Shown: positions 25 to 63,790 of the stretch, piece after piece
How the letters are laid out: every line of letters starts with the position of its first letter
Position numbering within the stretch: the stretch's first letter is position 1
Source of the DNA: Stropharia rugosoannulata
Taxonomy: Eukaryota > Basidiomycota > Agaricomycetes > Agaricales > Strophariaceae
Length of the DNA stretch: 64,000 nucleotides
Direction: 5' to 3'
NCBI GenBank assembly: GCA_028532985.1
Contig: JANCIK010000008.1
Location: 1,612,001 to 1,676,000 of the forward strand
The notes under the pieces: generated by a model
What the model saw: only the letters and a program-made list of their open reading frames with translations
What the model was told of the DNA's origin: nothing
Databases searched by the model: none
Translations under genes and position numbers: made by a program

Positions 25-876
25 CGGAGATCAGTGGCTAAAGACCCGCAATCGCTCCTTAGGGCTATACATAAGAGAGAATGCCAGCAGCCAAAAACTC
101 CTGTTTCTTTCAAGCTAGTCCATACTTTTCTAACCGATCCATTCGTCTCTCATGTATTGAGGGAATTACTCGTCGCTTCGGTGGGTATGGATCAACAATT
201 TACGCCCAACAAGATTTACATCGCCCGGTGCGACCTCGCCATAGAGCCGCTCTTGCCCGTCGTACGTAACCTTGCTACTGGAAGGAGGAAGGTATCCGAA
301 TATCCAAACGGTGTCGACGGCATGATCCACATACGAAAAGTACGCGGTCTCGACCCTTCCATCTTCTTGGATTCTGGACGAGAAAAAATTTGGAGATATG
401 GAAGAGAACTGGCATTAGATAGACACTGGAAAGAGGAATCATCGGGGAAAACTTTAGGTATAGGATTGATAGACTTCCATATGGATGGAACAGAACAGGT
501 CATTACTGTACCAATTCCCATCGACGAGGAAGCGGTGACCAAGGCTAGGGAGCGCCACTCAGACCTCATGAGTAAGGGTATCAGGCATCCTGAGGCGTCG
601 CAATCGCCCATGGAAAGATATATCTGTTAGTACGTACACAGTTCTCGTTTAATTATTCCGCCGCATATTTACAGCTTGAACAGTATGGTAAATTGCCGCA
701 TACAAGATGACGAAAAGAACATAATGAGGCTACGAACTCGTTTACCGCAGGAGGCACTCAACAAGTATGTAGGCATTGACCTGGATCAATATGCGCATGG
801 GGTTTCTTTACTCCCGCCCTCGACACCAGGCAAGGGTATAAACTTTGATACGGTTTACGTCTGGCCATCCGACTGA
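25..876 (+). CDS. Unrecognised protein, 3' part only (5' end outside window)
   Basis: An open frame runs from just after an in-frame TAG at 22-24, with no early ATG, so this is an internal exon whose acceptor lies between about 24 and 33 and whose 5' exons are off the left edge. I read exons 25..629 and 675..876. The 45-nt intron has donor GTACGT at 630 and acceptor ACAG at 674, and joins the two open frames in phase (TA|C gives Tyr). The visible part is about 268 residues, soluble-looking, with no signal peptide or membrane segment. I do not recognise the family. The conserved-looking stretch DGMIHIRKVRGLD sits near residue 95 of the visible part. The stop is TGA at 874-876. The exon pair is well supported; the function is unknown. 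Confidence 0.6.
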
Positions 877-1743
877 GTAGTACATGATTTTAAATGTAGT
901 GATCTAGTGTGTAAATGCAATGTTTCATTCGGTATAATGCTATGTGATAAACTGTTGCTCAGTTTGCGCCAATTCTCTGTCTCAATGTACATCTCTTGGA
1001 GTCAGTCAAACCCTAAGTCCATAGTCTTCTTAAGATTTGAGTACAAGTTGTGAAAGAATTGACGGTCTTATGATATGAAGTCAAACTTCAAATTGTCACC
1101 TAGAGCACAAGCAATAGGGGGCGCAAGCACTCAAATACTCAACCTTATCCAGACTATTCGATTATGAGTACCGAATAAGTAGTACAGAACAGAGTTCTGA
1201 GCTCCTTAGTAAGAAAGTCGACGAATATTCATTTTACGTGTCTACATGTCCAAGTATGTCAGTAAGTTTAAGCGCTCTGCAGTGATATTGTTGGGTACTA
1301 TCAAAGTACTATCATTATAAGAACTACTACGGGTACTTGGACACAATTTGAGATACCGAACGCTTGCAGGCGGCGCTTGCCGGACGACGAGGATTTATGG
1401 CAGTCGCCATCCCCATATACTCTAGTATCATCCCAGCGCCGTTATCCCTGAGCTTGTATAAATGGGGAAACAATACAGTATGTACGATATGCGCCTACCG
1501 TCACCCGTGCGCGTCAGGATATGTCGTACTCTACATGAAAAAATGTACACAGTCAATTAAGACTTAAACTGGTCCAGAAAGCTACTACGGAAAGGTTTCT
1601 CTGTTTGAATAGGTGGACTTGCAATATTCAATTTTGTTTGCTGAGCAGTGCTACTTATGTACATCGGCGTGCTAATTATTGTTCTCAGAACTTTATGCAT
1701 TTATGACATCCACTGTCCGCTATGGTATAGGCTGCTTAGATAC
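877..1743. other. Intergenic, nothing recognised
   Basis: AT-rich sequence with only short chance frames between the stop of the first gene and the left edge of the inverted repeat. No gene, repeat or RNA was recognised. Confidence 0.5.
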
Positions 1744-1851
1744 TTTGCATATCACACTCAAGACTCAACGGAGAGGCAGGTTTGATTTGATCAGTGAATG
1801 CATTTTTGATTACAAGCACAGATGTTCTAGTTTTCATAGCTACGAGGTAAC

Positions 1852-2605
1852 CTAAAACATTGTGTGTTTGGACTTCTGCTCGCCGTTTGCTTTCGCCACA
1901 GCTTTCTTGTATGGTTCGGGCAATTGCGAGTGCGCATGTTGGTTGTAGGCGTCTACAGACGGGTGGTCGTTGGGGTTCCCGATGTACAGATGTGCTTTGT
2001 CGTCAAGCTGCTTCGGGTTCCCGAAACGAGGGGTCTGAATAATGTTGCCGTCTTTATCCTTGTACTGTCCTGTCACATGAATCTTGGGATCATTTGATCC
2101 TTTGGAGTGGGCGAGGTTGCTACAATGTTACACCGTAATTAGAGACTTGTTGTTTCATTGGATAGTAGTATGAAGACGGAAACTTACACAACCTCAGCAG
2201 AATGCGTGCCAGGAGGCATCGATCCCGCTACAACATTCTTGTGCCAGTTCTCGGTTTGTTTTCGGTTGGCCGCGTGCAGGTTCAGCCTGTCGAGTGTGTT
2301 GGCTGCATCGTGGCGGCTGTCACCTGTGCGTATTTTGACCTCAGGTTTTGGTGCTGGTTTATTTGTGTTTTTGTGTTGTTCGCCGTGTCCTCGGGCTTCA
2401 AGCACCACCTGAGTGTTGTCGTAGCGAGAGTACAGATCAAATGCGTCCTCCCGAGATGCGAGTTCGCTACAAGAAAACACGTCAGTATAATTGCGTCGTG
2501 GGCAACAGCTTTAAACACTCACTTGACGTTACGCTCCGGAATGGGAATCGCAGAGCCAAGCTGGTAAAGGACAGAGGCAGATACGAGAACAGCGAAGAAA
2601 CGCAT
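1852..2605 (-). CDS. Small secreted protein, copy A (minus strand)
   Basis: Mirror image of the gene at 3987-4740; exons complement(2523..2605, 2188..2466, 1852..2119), with donors GTGAGT and GTAAGT and TAG acceptors. The product is 209 aa with an N-terminal hydrophobic segment of about 19 residues preceded by MR, a typical signal peptide ending near GSA. The mature part is very hydrophilic, rich in N, H, K and Q, and has no cysteine. Short R-containing motifs (LASRE, LEARG) near residues 30-55 could be Kex2-type processing sites, an inference only. I do not recognise a named domain. It lies head-to-head with an identical copy, and each has its own TATA-like box at the inner edge of its arm. 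Role unknown; extracellular location is likely. Confidence 0.8.
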
Positions 2606-2736
2606 GATAGTATAAAGAATAATTATATAGAGGAGGTGTTAAATGTGGAGTTGTTTGACGTTTTAGTGACCAGCACTAGTTGTTGTTGTGATGTACAGCG
2701 CAGCTGACGATGGGGAGTAGCTGGAATAAGAGCACC

Positions 2737-2744
2737 TTTTTATA
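2737..2744 (-). promoter_or_regulatory. TATA-like box of copy A
   Basis: TATAAAAA on the minus strand about 131 nt upstream of the copy A ATG (2605). It lies within the last 11 bases of the repeat arm, so the duplicated unit stops just upstream of its core promoter. Confidence 0.5.
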
Positions 2745-2747
2745 CTA

Positions 2748-3844
2748 TTAGCTGGACCAGCTGCTTGCCATTTCTGCTCATCCTCGGATCCCTCTCGATC
2801 TCGGACGTCGAAAAGTGCGAAAGCTCAGGCGCTCTGACATCGGTAGCGGAAATCAGTACGCCGACTCCGTACTTTCTCATGTCAACAAATGACAGGAAAG
2901 ATTACAGACAACTAAAAACAGGTCGAGATGGTGTGTAATAATATATTGACAACTGAGCCTTTAACTTGACCACGCCAATATCTCATCGAAACTATGAATT
3001 GCTCAATAACCTTTCTGAAACGCCCATAGTAATATTTAGATTCAGATGTTAATACGAGAAACATCCAGGGTTTAGCTTACAGAAATTTGTACGCTGGTCT
3101 AACGGGTCCCGCATTCAAGCTGATGTAACACGCGGTAACGCAACAAATAAAATAGCGGTGTGGCGCCCACAAACGCGCGGCTGTGAGCGTGCCGCCCATT
3201 GATTCTTACCGCTGGTTACTGGTTTCTGGCACCCATATGAGCTGTCAGCTTGACTGACGCCAGTACGTGCGTCGCAATTATAGCATGTCCGAGTTTGCAT
3301 CCATGACAGTTTGATGATACTTGAGTGTTCTTGAGCATGAAATTCTTGAAACGTAGTAGATCAGCGCTGAAAGGACAATCTTTGATGGTCACAATGACAT
3401 AACTTTCGCATGGTACGTACATTTGGGAAATGGTCGCAGATCAAACGCCCGTGCTGCGTTGACGTGATGGTTGTGTTATCTCTTTGTTCGTGGGAATGCG
3501 CTCCCCTATGCTCAACGTAAATGCTAAATGCTACTCCGGCTTTTTACCACAGAAGATACATTTATCGAGAACGTCGTGTTGCAAACATATTTGCATAACA
3601 TTCACTGATGAAGGGTGGGTGATTATTTTTAGTGTCCCGTCCCGTCACGTCAAAGGATGCGCACTCGGCGAGATGAAAAATGCGAATTGAAGTGAGAATT
3701 CATTGCAATATATTCGTGTATGAATTTTTAGGTCCTTAGCATATAATACGTACTTCGCACTTACGGCGTCTGACTCGGAGATCTGAACGAAGTTGAGATC
3801 AAATGAAAAGGGGAAGCACCACGGTTGGGTACTAGTGCAGTTAG
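2748..3844. other. Unique spacer between divergent gene copies
   Basis: About 1.1 kb of non-repeated sequence separating the two arms. It holds only short chance frames and no recognisable coding signal. Because both arms begin at their TATA boxes, this spacer must supply all upstream promoter sequence for the two identical genes, with different sequence facing each one. Confidence 0.6.
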
Positions 3845-3847
3845 TAG

Positions 3848-3855
3848 TATAAAAA
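3848..3855 (+). promoter_or_regulatory. TATA-like box of copy B
   Basis: TATAAAAA at the inner edge of the right arm, 132 nt before the last base upstream of the ATG at 3987. Same box as on the left arm, mirrored. Confidence 0.5.
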
Positions 3856-3986
3856 GGTGCTCTTATTCCAGCTACTCCCCATCGTCAGCTGCGCTGTACA
3901 TCACAACAACAACTAGTGCTGGTCACTAAAACGTCAAACAACTCCACATTTAACACCTCCTCTATATAATTATTCTTTATACTATC

Positions 3987-4740
3987 ATGCGTTTCTTCGC
4001 TGTTCTCGTATCTGCCTCTGTCCTTTACCAGCTTGGCTCTGCGATTCCCATTCCGGAGCGTAACGTCAAGTGAGTGTTTAAAGCTGTTGCCCACGACGCA
4101 ATTATACTGACGTGTTTTCTTGTAGCGAACTCGCATCTCGGGAGGACGCATTTGATCTGTACTCTCGCTACGACAACACTCAGGTGGTGCTTGAAGCCCG
4201 AGGACACGGCGAACAACACAAAAACACAAATAAACCAGCACCAAAACCTGAGGTCAAAATACGCACAGGTGACAGCCGCCACGATGCAGCCAACACACTC
4301 GACAGGCTGAACCTGCACGCGGCCAACCGAAAACAAACCGAGAACTGGCACAAGAATGTTGTAGCGGGATCGATGCCTCCTGGCACGCATTCTGCTGAGG
4401 TTGTGTAAGTTTCCGTCTTCATACTACTATCCAATGAAACAACAAGTCTCTAATTACGGTGTAACATTGTAGCAACCTCGCCCACTCCAAAGGATCAAAT
4501 GATCCCAAGATTCATGTGACAGGACAGTACAAGGATAAAGACGGCAACATTATTCAGACCCCTCGTTTCGGGAACCCGAAGCAGCTTGACGACAAAGCAC
4601 ATCTGTACATCGGGAACCCCAACGACCACCCGTCTGTAGACGCCTACAACCAACATGCGCACTCGCAATTGCCCGAACCATACAAGAAAGCTGTGGCGAA
4701 AGCAAACGGCGAGCAGAAGTCCAAACACACAATGTTTTAG
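3987..4740 (+). CDS. Small secreted protein, copy B (plus strand)
   Basis: Exons 3987..4069, 4126..4404 and 4473..4740; the introns (GTGAGT...TGTAG and GTAAGT...TGTAG) restore one frame of 209 codons plus TAG. The N-terminus is a clear signal peptide; the mature protein is basic to neutral, cysteine-free, and rich in Asn, His, Lys and Pro. The start is the first ATG after the TATA-like box and is followed directly by the signal sequence. The protein is identical to that of copy A. Small secreted proteins of this build are common in Agaricomycetes, but I recognise no domain and cannot assign a function. Two identical divergent copies could raise dosage or allow expression from two different upstream regions. 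Confidence 0.82.
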
Positions 4741-4848
4741 GTTACCTCGTAGCTATGAAAACTAGAACATCTGTGCTTGTAATCAAAAATGCATTCACTG
4801 ATCAAATCAAACCTGCCTCTCCGTTGAGTCTTGAGTGTGATATGCAAA

Positions 4849-5849
4849 ATACGTAATAACTCTTGTGTGTTGCTGATAATATATGTCCGTCAGTTTATTC
4901 AGTTCCGTCTCTACGCACTTCTGTCCGGCGCTCTCTGGTGTTGTACAGTTTTGTGTTAACCATCCGCATGCTGATTGTCACGTAGTGCGCCTCTCAGTTG
5001 AGCCCATCAGTCTATATCGGGAAGCAGATATTCTAAATGTGAATTACCCCATCAGGGACTTACAAAGTAGTACGTACATTCAATTTATGGAGCTGATTAC
5101 TTAAATACGTAACAGTGATGGCAACTTTTCTCCTTGAAGCAAGTAACCACAGCGGACGGCGTAACAGCGTAACAGAGCGAAACCTCACCTCGGAGGAATG
5201 AGGATGACTCATGACTCAGTACTCGGTACTTATATCTCTTAACATATTGTCCTCATCTCTTTTTAAGCACGATTGCGTGGCACAGATTAAGTAAAGCTCA
5301 AATGCGCTATCAAGGCCTACCCAAGTCCCGCCTAGTTGATGGGAGCAGAGCATCAAGGCATTCAATAAACTCAAGTATTCTTCCGCCAACACTCTGAGTG
5401 TCAAGCACACCGTATACTGAATTTAGGAATGCCTCAGGAATGCCGCCCAGCGACAACCATCATGATTCATGATCATGGCAACATCGTGTCAATCTTCGTT
5501 TGTTGGCAAATTGCAACGCCACGGTGTGCCTAAGTATTGAGATTTTAGCCGAACACCGCGATGAACACAAGACGAGCAACCGTGGAGAAACCAAAGAGCA
5601 GTAGTGAACATGGCGTTCTGACTTCTTCCTGTGGTTGTCCTGCGGTCGACCGTCTGACCATGAATATTCATCAGAGACGCGTAGAAGAGGAGAGAAGAGG
5701 TAGACGCACTACAAGCTGTTCAAATATTGAAGCTCAAGCGCTCATTACTAATTAGGATAAACTAAGAGGTGACGCAATACATGTACTAGCATGCACCCCA
5801 TATCTATCGAAGAAGATGATAACGCATAAATTCAAAAACGCCAAATCCT
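4849..5849. other. Intergenic, nothing recognised
   Basis: No frame with convincing coding character or splice continuity. Contains only short shadows on both strands. Confidence 0.45.
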
Positions 5850-6357
5850 TTGCTACAAACAGCTTGGAAAAGACATCCGCTCGTTAAACCCCACCAACAG
5901 CTCGACATACTCACGCGCATGTGTACTCCTACAAGCGCGCAGAGGAGCCAGGACACGCTCGTGAACATCGTCAAGCTCGTCGAACGGAGCGCATATGCCT
6001 GTGAACGCGAGCGTGCGGTACGGCGCAAATCGTGGGAAGGGCGCGCTGCAAGCCGTCTACGCTCCGTGTACGTCTCGCTTGAAAAGACGTTTGCGAGGTT
6101 TGCTCAGGAGCATAGGCTGACGTCGCACGCGGTTTCAACCGGGGAAAACCGACAGTGCAGTACTTCCCCGCAGACCAGAATTATGCAGTGCATACCCCCA
6201 TGCTTGCCATCGTGCTGATCCCGTTGCTGTTTGCTACACTGCGCGATTTTTATTTAGGAAGAGGAAGAAACAACGCAGCGGGCATTCTATTTCCGACGAG
6301 TACATCTGTTCGTTTAGTTAGTTATGTCGAGACTGCTCTTCTGACATGTCTTTAGCA
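5850..6357 (+). pseudogene. Coding-like fragment, probably a broken gene
   Basis: The frame from 5850 to about 6135 uses GC-ending codons (CTC, GTC, GCG, GTG) unlike its AT-rich surroundings, and encodes a helical, Arg/Glu-rich stretch (VNIVKLVERSAYACERERA). From about 6155 a different frame continues with a hydrophobic segment (AIVLIPLLFATLRDFYLG) followed by further open sequence to 6355. The only GT...AG between the two frames would leave an intron of about 24 nt, too short, so a frameshift is more likely than splicing. No ATG in good context precedes it. I do not recognise the family; it may be a gene relic or two exons of an unrecognised gene. Confidence 0.3.
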
Positions 6358-6781: not shown

Positions 6782-9144
6782 ATGTCTGACAAAATCACGC
6801 GTATCGCCATTGTCGATGCAAATCGTTGCAAACCCAAGCGGTGTGCACAGGAGTGCAAAAAGGTATGCCCAGGGACTTCCCATGTAGTCGCATGCTGATA
6901 AACGCAGTCATGTCCGGTCGTGAAAATGGGTGCGCTTGCTCATCGTTGACCCCAGCGCCCCGTACTGAGTCATGCTAGGCAAATTGTGTATCGAGGTCAA
7001 GCCCACGGACAAGATCGCCTTCATCTCAGAGTTCCTGTGTATCGGTTGCGGTATCTGCGTGAAGAAGTGCGCACGATTATCATTCGTCATCGCCATCTTT
7101 AATCTGACCTCACCATAGGTGCCCTTTTGAGGCCATCGCAATCATCAACCTCCCCACCAATCTCGAATCCCAAGTGACGCATCGTTATACAGCCAATGCA
7201 TTCAAGCTCCATCGACTGCCGACTCCCCGTCCTGGCCAAGTCCTTGGATTGGTGGGCACCAACGGTATCGGGAAGAGCACAGCGCTCAAGATCCTTGCTG
7301 GAAAACTGAAGCCCAACCTTGGGCGCTACGATGTACGCATTTATCTCATCCGCAGCTGTTGGCTCTGACTCTCCTGCAGGATCCACCCGACTGGCAGGAG
7401 ATCCTCAAGTACTTCCGAGGCTCTGAGCTGCAGAATTACTTCACCAAGGTTCTTGAAGACAATCTCAAGGCCCTTATCAAGCCACAGTATGTGGACCATA
7501 TCCCTAAAGCCATCAAGGGATCGATGTCTGTGTCCCAAATGCTTGACTCCAAGGTCGAGCTCGATAACAAGGCGAAGATGTGCGACGAGCTCGAGCTCAA
7601 CCACGTATTGGACCGCGAAATCTCGCATCTATCTGGTGGAGAGCTGCAGCGCTTCGCTATCGCCATGACTTGTATCCAGAGAGCCGATGTGTAAGTACAT
7701 TTGTGAAGAGCGATTTTTTGTACTGACAGTTGCATAGGTATATGTTTGACGAGCCGTCTTCGTACCTTGATATCAAACAGCGTCTCAAGGCTGCCGAAGT
7801 TATCCGCTCTCTCTTGACTCCAGACTGCTACATCATCGCCGTCGAGCACGATCTGTCCGTGCTCGACTATCTATCCGACTTCATCTGTTGTTTGTATGGC
7901 AAGCCTTCTATGTACGGTGTTGTCACCATGCCGTCCTCGGTCCGTGAGGGAATCAATATTTTCCTCGACGGTTTCATTCCGACTGAGAACTTGCGCTTCC
8001 GTGAGGAGTCTCTCTCCTTCAAGATGGTGGAAAACGCGGAGGAAGTTCTCGTCGACAAGACAAGACATTACTCGTACCCGTCCATGACGAAGACCCTTGG
8101 CGGCTTCAAGCTCACCGTTGAGGCGGGTAGCTTCACTGACTCCGAAATCATTGTCATGCTTGGAGAGAACGGCACTGGCAAGACGACGTTCGTGCGCCTC
8201 CTGGCGGGAGATACGCCCGACGAAGAAACGGACAAGCTCTCCCTGGCAGTCTCGCTCAAGCCACAGACGATCTCGCCCAAGTTCCCCGGCACCGTACGCA
8301 TGTTGCTGCTGAAGCAGATCAGGGCGGCATTCATGCACCCGCAGTTCCAAACGGATGTGCTCAAGCCGATGAGCTTGGATAACATTATGGACCAGGAGGT
8401 CAAGACGTTGTCCGGAGGAGAGCTGCAGCGTGTGGCTATTACGTTGGCTCTCGGTATGTTTTTTGTCTATTTTATATTGGGCGCCGGCGCGGCCCTGAAA
8501 GTCCTTGGCTGACGACGCATCTTTTGCATCACAGGTAAGCCGAACGTTGCCGTCTACCTTCTCGACGAGCCCAGTTCGTGAGTGCTCCAACCTTCTGCTG
8601 CCCCCATCACTGTTCTATTGACACACACTGCAACAGTTTCCTCGATTCCGAACAGCGTATCATCGCAAGCAAGGTCATCAAGAGGTACGTCGCGACGACG
8701 GTGTTCCCCTGACTCCAGAAGCATAATCTGACAGCATATAAACAAACAGATTCATCCTTCACGCTAAGAAGACCGCCTTTGTCATTGAGCACGATTTCAT
8801 TATGGCCACGTACCTCGCCGACCGCGTTATCGTGTTCGAGGGCCAGCCGGCGCGCCATGCGACTGCTACGCCGTACGTGCCTCATATATAGTCAGATCAG
8901 GATACATCGTCCTGACCACACCACAGACCGCAATCACTCCTGTCCGGCATGAATCGCTTCCTGGCCTCCCTCGAGATCACCTTCCGCCGCGATCCAACCA
9001 ACTACCGCCCGCGCGTTAACAAGATGAACTCCATCAAGGATCGCGAGCAAAAGGGTGCGCTTTCTCCCGTCTTTCCTTGCTCTTGGGCATTGTTTCTGAC
9101 CAACGAATGTAGCTGCTGGCAACTATTTCTTCCTCGAGGATTAA
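6782..9144 (+). CDS. RLI1: ABCE1/RLI1 ribosome-recycling ATPase
   Basis: Eleven exons: 6782..6862, 6908..6929, 6979..7066, 7119..7332, 7380..7690, 7738..8453, 8535..8577, 8637..8684, 8750..8872, 8927..9054, 9113..9144; 601 aa, the family's usual length. The N-terminus has the two [4Fe-4S] cysteine clusters ([16 protein letters not shown] and [12 protein letters not shown]). Nucleotide-binding domain 1 has Walker [10 protein letters not shown], signature LSGGELQR and Walker [10 protein letters not shown]; domain 2 has [17 protein letters not shown] and VYLLDEPSS. The protein ends YFFLED, as in other ABCE1. The known role is splitting 80S ribosomes after termination and in initiation, in cytosol and nucleus. 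All exons join in phase with no stop. The start is the ATG giving [11 protein letters not shown], matching the family. Essential and normally single-copy; identity is certain. Confidence 0.97.
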
Positions 9145-61659: not shown

Positions 61660-62270
61660 GCGTGAATACTCGGCCATAGCAAGTTTACATACTCGGCCAT
61701 AGAAAGCATATATACTCGGCCATAAATGTGTAGATACTTGGCTATAAAAGTGCAGAAACTCGACCATAAAATCATAAATGCTCATCTACAAAATGCATGA
61801 ATACTCGGCGATAAATAGTGTAAATACTCGGCCATAAATATGTAGTAGATACTCGGCCATAAAAGTTTAGATACTCATTTACAAAATAAATAAATACTCG
61901 GCTATAAAATGCATAAATACTCGGCCATAAAGATTGTAGATATTCGGCCATAGAATGGATGGGTACTCGGCCATAAATATGTAGATACTCGGCCATAAAA
62001 GTTTAGATACTCATCTACAAAATAAATAAATACTCGGCTATAAAATGCATAAATACTCGGGCATAGAAAGGATGGATACTCGGCCATAAATATGTAAATA
62101 CTCGGCCATAAAAAAGCACAGATACTCGGCCATAAAAGCATAAATACTCGGCATAAATACTCGGCCATAAAAGTTTAGATACTCATCTACAAAATGCATA
62201 AATAGTTGGCTATAAAATGCATAAATACTCGGCCATAAAAAGTGTAAATACTTGGTCATTTCCTGCAGCT
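61660..62270. repeat. ATACTCGGCCATAAA minisatellite
   Basis: At least 13 exact copies of ACTCGGCCATA plus many variants (ACTCGGCTATA, ATTCGGCCATA, ACTTGGCTATA, ACTCGACCATA), spaced about 20-25 nt apart by short AT-rich linkers. A second-order unit of about 130 nt is visible: the blocks near 61842-61930 and 61972-62060 are nearly identical, each containing TAGATACTCAT(C/T)TACAAAATA. Minus-strand frames through it (MAEYL...YGRV) are by-products of the repeat. Confidence 0.92.
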
Positions 62271-63020
62271 AATTGGTAACCAGCAGCATGAATTCTGATG
62301 CTTATTCTCTTATGTAGTCATTGGCCATTTCATATTAGAATGCTTAATATATAAGCATAATGGCCGATGATCACAATTTACTTAGAGATATTGTAGCCTA
62401 GTGTAGTAATTGAATTAAGTGCCAAGTGTGCTAATAGCAAAAGTCATGGTGTACTCAGAGATATTAACCTACTATGGCTTTCAAAGCATGATGTGGGGCC
62501 TGTTAACAGAGCAGGTTACAGAAAATAGAAGTTTTAAGGTGTTTTGATGTATGACCTTACCCAGTGGTTACAAGTAAGGCCTGTAAGAAATAAACTCTGG
62601 ATATAAAAAAGATGGGGTTACATGATCCATGGAGATGCGAGTACATACTAATAGAGAGAGTAAAAATATAGTAAAGAGGGATGGCAGAAGTATGTGCAAT
62701 ATAGAATGGTGCACGAAAGTGGGCATAACTAAACCATGGGGAGGATATAACAGTTTTGCAAGCCAGAGGTGGGTTATCTTTGTCTTTGCCTCTAGCAATG
62801 GTACAAGAATATTGTGTGTCTCACTCAATAATAACTCCAGATTGCTGCTGAGTGGACAAGATATATAAACCATGAACAGTTGTATACAGCTGTTATAGAG
62901 ACACACCCTGCCCTTTCTTCTCATTCTAAACAACTGTTAAATACCATATCTCTCTATTCTAATTCATCTATGGACCTGCAAAGTATATGTTTGGCTATAC
63001 ATTTAAGCAGCTTGAATTAA
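62271..63020. other. AT-rich spacer between two arrays
   Basis: No gene or repeat was recognised in these 750 bases. Confidence 0.45.
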
Positions 63021-63790
63021 GGCTGATGTTTTTACTATTAATGGCTGACAATTTTAATAGTAACAGTTAATGTTTTTACTATTAACTAGTACCGGCCGAT
63101 GTTTTTACTATAATTATTAACTAGTACCAGCCAATGTTTCTACTATTAATGATTAACTAGTACCGGCCGATGTTTTTACTATAATTATTATCTAGTACCA
63201 GCCGACATTTCTACTATTAATGATTAACTAGTACCGGCCGATGTTTTTACTATTAATGGCTGACACTTTTACTAGTACTGGCCGATGTTTTACTATTAAT
63301 GATTAACTAGTTAACTAGTACCGGTCAATGTTTTTACTATTAATGGCCGACACTTTTACTAGTATTGGCTGATGCTTCTACTATTAATGTCTGACACTTT
63401 TATTAGTATTGGCCGATGTTTTTATCATTAATAGCTGATACTTATACTGATATTGGCTGATGTTTTTTTTTTTTGTGATAATGGCCGACATTTTCAGTCA
63501 ACATTTCTACTAGTAACAGCCGGTGTATTTCTATGTAGCAGCCAATATCTTTGATAGTACAAGCTCATGTCTTACTAGTAGCAGCCAATATGCTAGTTAC
63601 AGCCATACTAGTCACAGGCAATATTTTCTACAAGAATTTTTACTAGTAATGGCCGATGTTTATGCTAGTGATTTCTGCTAGTAATGGTCGATGTATTTGC
63701 TAGTAACAGTTGGCATATTGACTAGTACCGGCCGATGTTCTTACTAGTAAATGACCAATGATTTTACTACTTATGGCCGATGTTTTATAG
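63021..63790. repeat. ACCGGCCGATGTTTTTACTAT minisatellite
   Basis: Roughly 25 imperfect copies of a 20-40-nt unit around (C/T)(C/T)GGCCGATGTTTTTACTA(T/G)TA, mixed with ATTAACTAGTACCGG and GGCTGACACTTTTACTAG variants. The first half is regular; from about 63480 the copies diverge (CAGCCAATATTT, AGCAGCCAATAT). Interrupted by a T tract near 63463. Non-coding. Confidence 0.9.

What the first reader, a model, noticed from the sequence alone, without database searches (positions are those of the whole stretch)
1744..4848. Perfect 1-kb inverted repeat with two identical divergent secreted-protein genes
Seen directly: 1744-2747 and 3845-4848 are reverse complements over 1,004 bp, introns included, with sharp ends just upstream of the TATA box and about 108 nt after the stop. 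The unit duplicated is one whole transcription unit. Zero divergence in introns and flanks means a very recent inversion-duplication, active gene conversion between arms, or misassembly. Long palindromes are normally unstable, so retention would suggest selection for dosage or two promoters.
Basis: seen in the sequence. Interest (0 to 1): 0.75.

Follow-up and report, generated by a model that had tools for sequence, protein, structure and literature searches.

The report
Mirror-image gene pair kept identical
Two neighbouring copies of an uncharacterised fungal gene, pointing away from each other, are letter-for-letter identical over one kilobase although the control regions beside them are old and different, so one copy was most likely recently overwritten by the other, as is known from a few fly, worm and yeast gene pairs.

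Summary
In detail: 1744-2747 and 3845-4848 are exact reverse complements (1,004 of 1,004 bp) around a 1,097-bp spacer. Each arm is one transcription unit, from 3 bp before the TATA box to 108 nt after the stop: three exons, two introns, a 209-aa probably secreted protein.

The same genome (48 Mb, fungal) holds at least four more family members: a tandem pair on C7 and a convergent, non-homogenised pair on C13. Just outside the arms the two promoters are diverged, yet resemble each other (0 and 2 of 5,000 random segments score as high) and, above all for the left copy, the paralogues' promoters. Beyond its 3' end the right copy continues in homology to paralogue A; the left does not. So neither copy looks like a fresh insertion: both lie at old family loci, and the unit between was recently homogenised. 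Synonymous divergence to A is about 0.67, between the arms 0.

Best reading: ectopic gene conversion between head-to-head paralogues, probably right to left. This is a known kind (Drosophila Amy/Hsp70, C. elegans hsp-16, Saccharomyces flip/flop). Collapse of near-identical arms during assembly is not excluded. Protein function is unknown.

The parts
1744..2747 (-). Left arm (copy L): whole transcription unit, mirror image of the right arm
   Evidence: 1,004 of 1,004 bp identical to the reverse complement of 3845-4848
3845..4848 (+). Right arm (copy R): whole transcription unit
   Evidence: same unit at 77% DNA identity on C7 (paralogue A)
1852..2605 (-). Gene L, ATG to stop; exons 2523-2605, 2188-2466, 1852-2119; 209 aa
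   Evidence: gene model by splice sites and by alignment to paralogues
3987..4740 (+). Gene R, ATG to stop; exons 3987-4069, 4126-4404, 4473-4740; 209 aa; hydrophobic N-terminus read as a signal peptide (inferred, no predictor run)
   Evidence: homologues
2748..3844 (.). Spacer between the arms, holding the two divergent promoters
   Evidence: no second match in the own genome at E<=10
2748..2857 (-). Upstream region of copy L (110 bp outside the arm), old family promoter
   Evidence: anchored score to A 50.5 (0 and 0 of 5,000 random segments as high), to B 42.5 (1 and 0), to C 34.5 (2 and 3), to D 33.5 (6 and 6)
3735..3844 (+). Upstream region of copy R (110 bp outside the arm), diverged family promoter
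   Evidence: anchored score to L 38.5 (0 and 2 of 5,000), to B 35.0 (2 and 3), to C 28.0 (22 and 42), to A 24.5 (116 and 106), to D 15.5 (1,004 and 814; not significant)
5020..5086 (+). 3' flank of copy R beyond the arm, colinear with the 3' flank of paralogue A
   Evidence: 52 of 68 aligned columns identical, E=8e-9; score 59 against a maximum of 29 in 600 random comparisons
5194..5217 (+). Second short block of the R 3' flank that matches A
   Evidence: 21 of 24, E=0.007
3882..3930 (+). Conserved 5'-leader blocks GTCAGCTGCGCTGTACATC and TAGTGCTGGTCACTAAA (mirrored in L at 2662-2708)
   Evidence: both exact in L, R, A and B; first block with 1 mismatch in C; second with 2 mismatches in C and in D

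Best explanation
L and R are two old paralogues of a small gene family, lying head to head. An ectopic gene-conversion event (repair of a break in one copy using the other as template, which an intrachromosomal inverted repeat allows) recently overwrote one transcription unit with the other. The tract runs from 3 bp before the TATA box to 108 nt after the stop codon. It left the two upstream regions different, so identical genes are now read from two diverged promoters. The 3' end of the arm continues into family sequence only at R, so R was probably the donor and L the recipient. Shown: the identity, the boundaries, the paralogues, the family-like flanks, no difference between the arms. Inferred: the conversion mechanism, its direction, expression from both promoters.
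For: Identity 1,004 of 1,004 bp, upper 95% bound on divergence 0.30%. The 110-bp regions wholly outside the arms, aligned from the TATA box: L-R score 38.5, reached by 0 and 2 of 5,000 random segments and by 0 of 124 comparisons with other TATAAA sites; L-A 0 and 0, L-B 1 and 0, R-B 2 and 3 of 5,000. In a tree of the promoters the L-R path is about 0.89 substitutions per site, similar to L-A (about 1.02), while it is effectively 0 in the transcribed unit (promoter nodes weakly supported, 48 and 70). R's 3' flank matches A's outside the arm: 0 of 600 random comparisons as high; L's matches none of A, B, C, D (0.23 or more of random comparisons as high). dS R-A 0.67 (NG86) or 0.78 (YN00), dN 0.11 or 0.10. 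The family's other pairs differ by 25% (A-B) and 44% (C-D) in their exons, so near-identity is not the rule for this family.
Against: No strains, sister species or reads were available, so conversion was inferred from one genome. R's promoter resembles A only weakly (116 and 106 of 5,000) and D not at all; A-B, A-C and B-C promoter similarity is not significant either, so the promoter argument rests mainly on L and on the pairs L-R and R-B. Shared binding sites could add to the promoter similarity. L's 3' flank has no family homology, so at that end a plain non-homologous junction is also possible.
Confidence: 0.75

Rival explanations
1. Recent incomplete inverted duplication: the unit alone was copied, by chance from the TATA box to the 3' UTR, into a place without a family gene.
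For: Sharp ends and zero divergence. A Caenorhabditis review warns that identity with diverged flanks alone does not exclude this (PMC3966223, passages). L's 3' flank is unrelated to the family.
Against: L's upstream region is that of an old family member (to A 0 and 0, to B 1 and 0 of 5,000), and R has a family-like 3' flank, so each copy has its own old family sequence next to it. Copying into a resident family member is gene conversion in effect.
Confidence: 0.1
2. Assembly artefact: both genes are real, but the assembler or polisher merged two similar arms into one sequence used twice.
For: Short-read assemblies cannot resolve long near-identical inverted repeats (PMC9731477, Discussion). 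No reads were available here.
Against: The four junctions are different, and at least three of them (both promoters, the R 3' flank) carry family homology that a doubled contig would not bring. A missed-adapter palindrome would have almost no spacer (recalled), here it is 1,097 bp. Merging needs arms that were already nearly identical, so recent homogenisation would still stand. The genome has 20 contigs for 48 Mb, which suggests long reads (inferred).
Confidence: 0.12
3. The whole 1744-4848 block is a mobile element with 1-kb terminal inverted repeats.
For: ATAC abuts both outer ends (1740-1743 and 4849-4852; read), like a 4-bp target duplication.
Against: A 4-bp match is expected about once in 256 tries. 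R's 3' flank outside the block is family sequence, so that end is old. Neither the spacer nor the arm 3' ends (matches of A, B and C start at query 107-110) are repeated elsewhere in the genome as far as the search reached.
Confidence: 0.03

Closest known systems
Drosophila Amy-p/Amy-d and Hsp70Aa/Ab palindromic pairs
   Same: Linked paralogues in mirror orientation; concerted evolution by ectopic gene conversion, for Amy confined to the coding region while flanks evolve on their own (PMC3924832, passages)
   Different: Different gene family and kingdom; here introns, leader and 3' UTR are included; only one genome examined
C. elegans hsp16-1/hsp16-48 modules
   Same: Identical modules as an inverted repeat with diverged flanks; the authors favoured gene conversion (PMC3966223, passages)
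   Different: There the module is a gene pair of 1.9 kb; here one gene of 1.0 kb per arm, and paralogues show that the flanks are old
Saccharomyces flip/flop inverted repeat (YNL018C/YNL034W)
   Same: Fungal inverted repeat of lineage-restricted genes kept homogeneous by gene conversion (PMC9731477, passages and Discussion)
   Different: 4.2-kb repeats 24 kb apart, shown across eight species with inversion polymorphism; here 1.0 kb, 1.1 kb apart, inversion untested

Membership tests
Gene pair homogenised by ectopic gene conversion | Paralogues far more alike than the age of their loci allows | tested here: met
   0 differences in 1,004 bp beside homologous but diverged promoters (L-R 52 of 98 aligned bases, a stretch that includes 2 bp of the arm; for significance)
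Gene pair homogenised by ectopic gene conversion | Abrupt change from identity to divergence at tract ends | tested here: met
   strict flanks
Gene pair homogenised by ectopic gene conversion | Paralogues within a species closer than orthologues between species | not testable with these tools
   no genome of a close relative with positions was available; closest named homologue is 41% identical in protein
Gene pair homogenised by ectopic gene conversion | Shared polymorphism between copies, or conversion seen in reads or populations | not testable with these tools
   no reads or strains
Flip/flop inverted repeat | Spacer found in both orientations | not testable with these tools
   one assembly only; promoter and 3'-flank trees point in the direction of a past flip but with weak support (70 and 71)
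Transposon with long terminal inverted repeats | Whole block inserted in unrelated DNA, with target duplication | tested here: not met
   ATAC at both ends, but R's outer flank is old family sequence
Secreted orphan family of Agaricales (no name) | Sequence homology over the protein | tested here: met
   19 proteins at E<=0.01 with the alignment of six (five from this genome plus P0002); 8 from named species, 11 from JGI sources without species; four of the five named species looked up, all Agaricales
Any Pfam family or solved fold | Profile, sequence or fold match | tested here: inconclusive

The most novel reading that the evidence does not exclude
The palindrome is a promoter switch: recombination between the identical arms not only copies one gene onto the other but now and then flips the 1,097-bp spacer, exchanging the two diverged promoters between the two genes, while conversion keeps the product constant. 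The promoter nearest to paralogue A now drives L, whereas the 3' flank nearest to A lies behind R, which is what one past flip would leave.
Probability: 0.1. Interest if true: 0.55.

Novelty: new member of a known kind. Interest (0 to 1): 0.35.

Why it matters
Reviews caution that identical genes with diverged flanks may be either converted old duplicates or recent partial ones (PMC3966223, passages). Here paralogues elsewhere in the genome show that the flanks of both copies are old, which largely settles it from one assembly. It adds a compact case from a fungus that, by its protein relatives, is probably a mushroom (inferred): arms 1 kb, spacer 1.1 kb, one gene per arm, with identical products under two different promoters. 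That makes it a tractable place to measure conversion tracts and spacer inversion.

Tried and rejected
Recent duplication as sole cause: disfavoured by the flank tests. A first promoter test included 2 bp of the arm in each 110-bp stretch; I repeated it strictly outside the arms, where results weaken slightly but hold for L-R, L-A, L-B, L-C, L-D and R-B; R-A and R-C are weak and R-D, A-B, A-C, B-C not significant.

Weak palindrome inside the spacer (score 44 against a maximum of 41.5 in 50 shuffles): not centred on the spacer; not pursued. Inverted homology of the outer flanks: none above shuffles. The longer unanchored upstream comparison (600 bp) gives L-R no signal (0.59 of random comparisons as high); only the TATA-anchored 110 bp does.

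RNA structure in the 5' leader: not better than shuffles (z 0.39). Structure of a relative and fold searches gave no usable match. In one search paralogue C (L005) was given in the wrong orientation and gave no alignment; one search did not test it in the promoter comparison; C and D were compared from then on.

Paper searches found no fungal case of a head-to-head pair like this one beyond the yeast repeat; they cover open-licence papers only and I saw listings, so this is no claim that none is in print.

Full report
What is there. Bases 1744-2747 and 3845-4848 are reverse complements over 1,004 of 1,004 bp and the match stops at those bases. The repeat finder reports no other inverted repeat of 60 nt or more in the 64 kb. 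The spacer, 2748-3844, has no second match in the genome at E<=10. Each arm is one gene with its core promoter: TATA box 3 bp inside the arm, a leader, three exons, two short introns and 108 nt after the stop. The protein has 209 residues and a hydrophobic start that I read as a signal peptide; no predictor was run.

The family. The window lies in a genome of 48.0 Mb in 20 contigs. DNA and protein searches of it found four more members, a lower bound by the tool's own note: A and B, in tandem on C7; C and D, convergent on C13. Exon identity to R is 82% (A), 73% (B), 65% (C) and 61% (D); A-B 75% and C-D 56%. So the other two pairs are not homogenised. R against A: dN 0.108, dS 0.672 by NG86, 0.102 and 0.780 by YN00, which indicates purifying selection. 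A search with six aligned proteins (five from this genome and P0002 of Crassisporium funariophilum) gave 19 proteins at E<=0.01 among 6,249 candidates: 8 with species names (Crassisporium funariophilum 4, Cyclocybe aegerita, Flammula alnicola, Psilocybe cyanescens, Agrocybe chaxingu 1 each) and 11 from JGI without one. Four of these five species were looked up and are Agaricales.

Which cause. If the unit had been freshly copied into unrelated DNA, at least one copy would lack old family sequence at its edges. I aligned the 110 bp wholly outside each arm, anchored next to the TATA box, and compared with random window segments in two directions of 5,000 each. L-A: 0 and 0 as high. L-R: 0 and 2. 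L-B: 1 and 0. L-C: 2 and 3. L-D: 6 and 6. R-B: 2 and 3. R-C: 22 and 42. R-A: 116 and 106. Not significant: R-D (1,004 and 814), A-B (922 and 1,040), A-C (269 and 338), B-C (1,894 and 1,687). Against 62 other TATAAA sites (124 comparisons) L-R, L-A, L-B, L-C, L-D and R-B were reached by 0, R-C by 2 and R-A by 3. So L's promoter is clearly that of the family and R's is a more diverged one. Unanchored, over 600 bp, L-R shows nothing (0.59 of random comparisons as high).

On the other side of the genes, the R flank beyond the arm is colinear with the flank of A: 5020-5086 matches at 52 of 68 columns (E=8e-9) and 5194-5217 at 21 of 24 (E=0.007); the best local score, 59, exceeds all of 600 random comparisons (maximum 29). 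The L flank matches none of A, B, C, D (0.75, 0.77, 0.23 and 0.95 of random comparisons as high) nor R (0.58). The last 108 nt inside the arm are also related to A's 3' UTR (0 of 1,000 as high). So the arm's 3' end belongs with R's flank, and R is the likelier donor.

Together: two old, diverged loci with an interior that has no differences. Trees say the same with little support at the nodes: the L-R path is about 0.89 substitutions per site in the promoter, and effectively zero in the transcribed unit. Recent gene conversion over one tract explains this with the fewest steps. With 0 of 1,004 differences the 95% upper bound on divergence since then is 0.30%.

What is not settled. No reads, strains or sister genomes were available. 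Assembly collapse of two nearly identical arms would also give perfect identity, though it presupposes recent homogenisation. The mechanism and direction of conversion are inferred, as is expression from both promoters. Selection for dosage, or for two promoters with one product, is possible but untested.

A bolder reading. Recombination between inverted arms can also invert the spacer; in the yeast flip/flop region the authors propose just this as a by-product of homogenisation (PMC9731477, Discussion). Here the spacer holds both promoters, so a flip would swap them. The promoter nearest to A belongs to L, the 3' flank nearest to A to R, as one flip would leave; but the nodes have support 70 and 71 only, and L's promoter is also nearest to C and D, so it may merely be the slower one.

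Comparison with known cases. In Drosophila the Hsp70 and Amy pairs lie in 'palindromic' orientation and undergo conversion, for Amy confined to the coding sequence with independent flanks (PMC3924832, passages). For the C. elegans hsp16 modules conversion was favoured over recent duplication because flanks were diverged, and the review warns that a partial duplication could look alike (PMC3966223, passages). The present case is of this kind; what it adds is that paralogues show the flanks to be old.

Noticed in passing
window 3882-3900 and 3914-3930 (mirrored 2690-2708 and 2662-2678): Two near-invariant blocks in the 5' leader, GTCAGCTGCGCTGTACATC and TAGTGCTGGTCACTAAA. Exact matches to each lie only in L, R, A and B in this genome; C has the first with 1 mismatch; C and D have the second with 2, as do three unrelated places. 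RNA folding is not better than shuffles. They may be core-promoter or leader elements of this family.
   Followed up: partly
window 5898-6251 and G000:C8:1610775-1611132: A 68% direct copy of this stretch lies about 1.2 kb left of the window start, in the same orientation, so the palindrome sits between two diverged direct copies.
   Followed up: partly
window 47-787: Diverged copies (66-76%) of this stretch lie on C9 (3,164 kb), C7 (1,972-1,975 kb) and C8 (1,595 kb). No Pfam match for the longest open frame there.
   Followed up: partly
window 61666-62255 and 63016-63740: Two AT-rich tandem arrays with short units, built on ACTCGGCCATAAA and on TTAACTAGTACCGGCCGATG.
   Followed up: no
window 1740-1743 and 4849-4852: ATAC abuts both outer ends of the palindrome, like a 4-bp target duplication; probably chance, since the right flank is old family sequence.
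   Followed up: partly
G000:C13:250977-253814 (L008:4977-7814): The sister family pair C and D is also inverted, but tail to tail, and has diverged (56% in exons), so inverted arrangement alone does not keep copies identical.
   Followed up: partly
window 7131-8512: Open frames matching the ABC transporter domain (one above Pfam's cut-off, one below); by my reading an ABCE1/RLI1-like gene (recalled, not tested).
   Followed up: no
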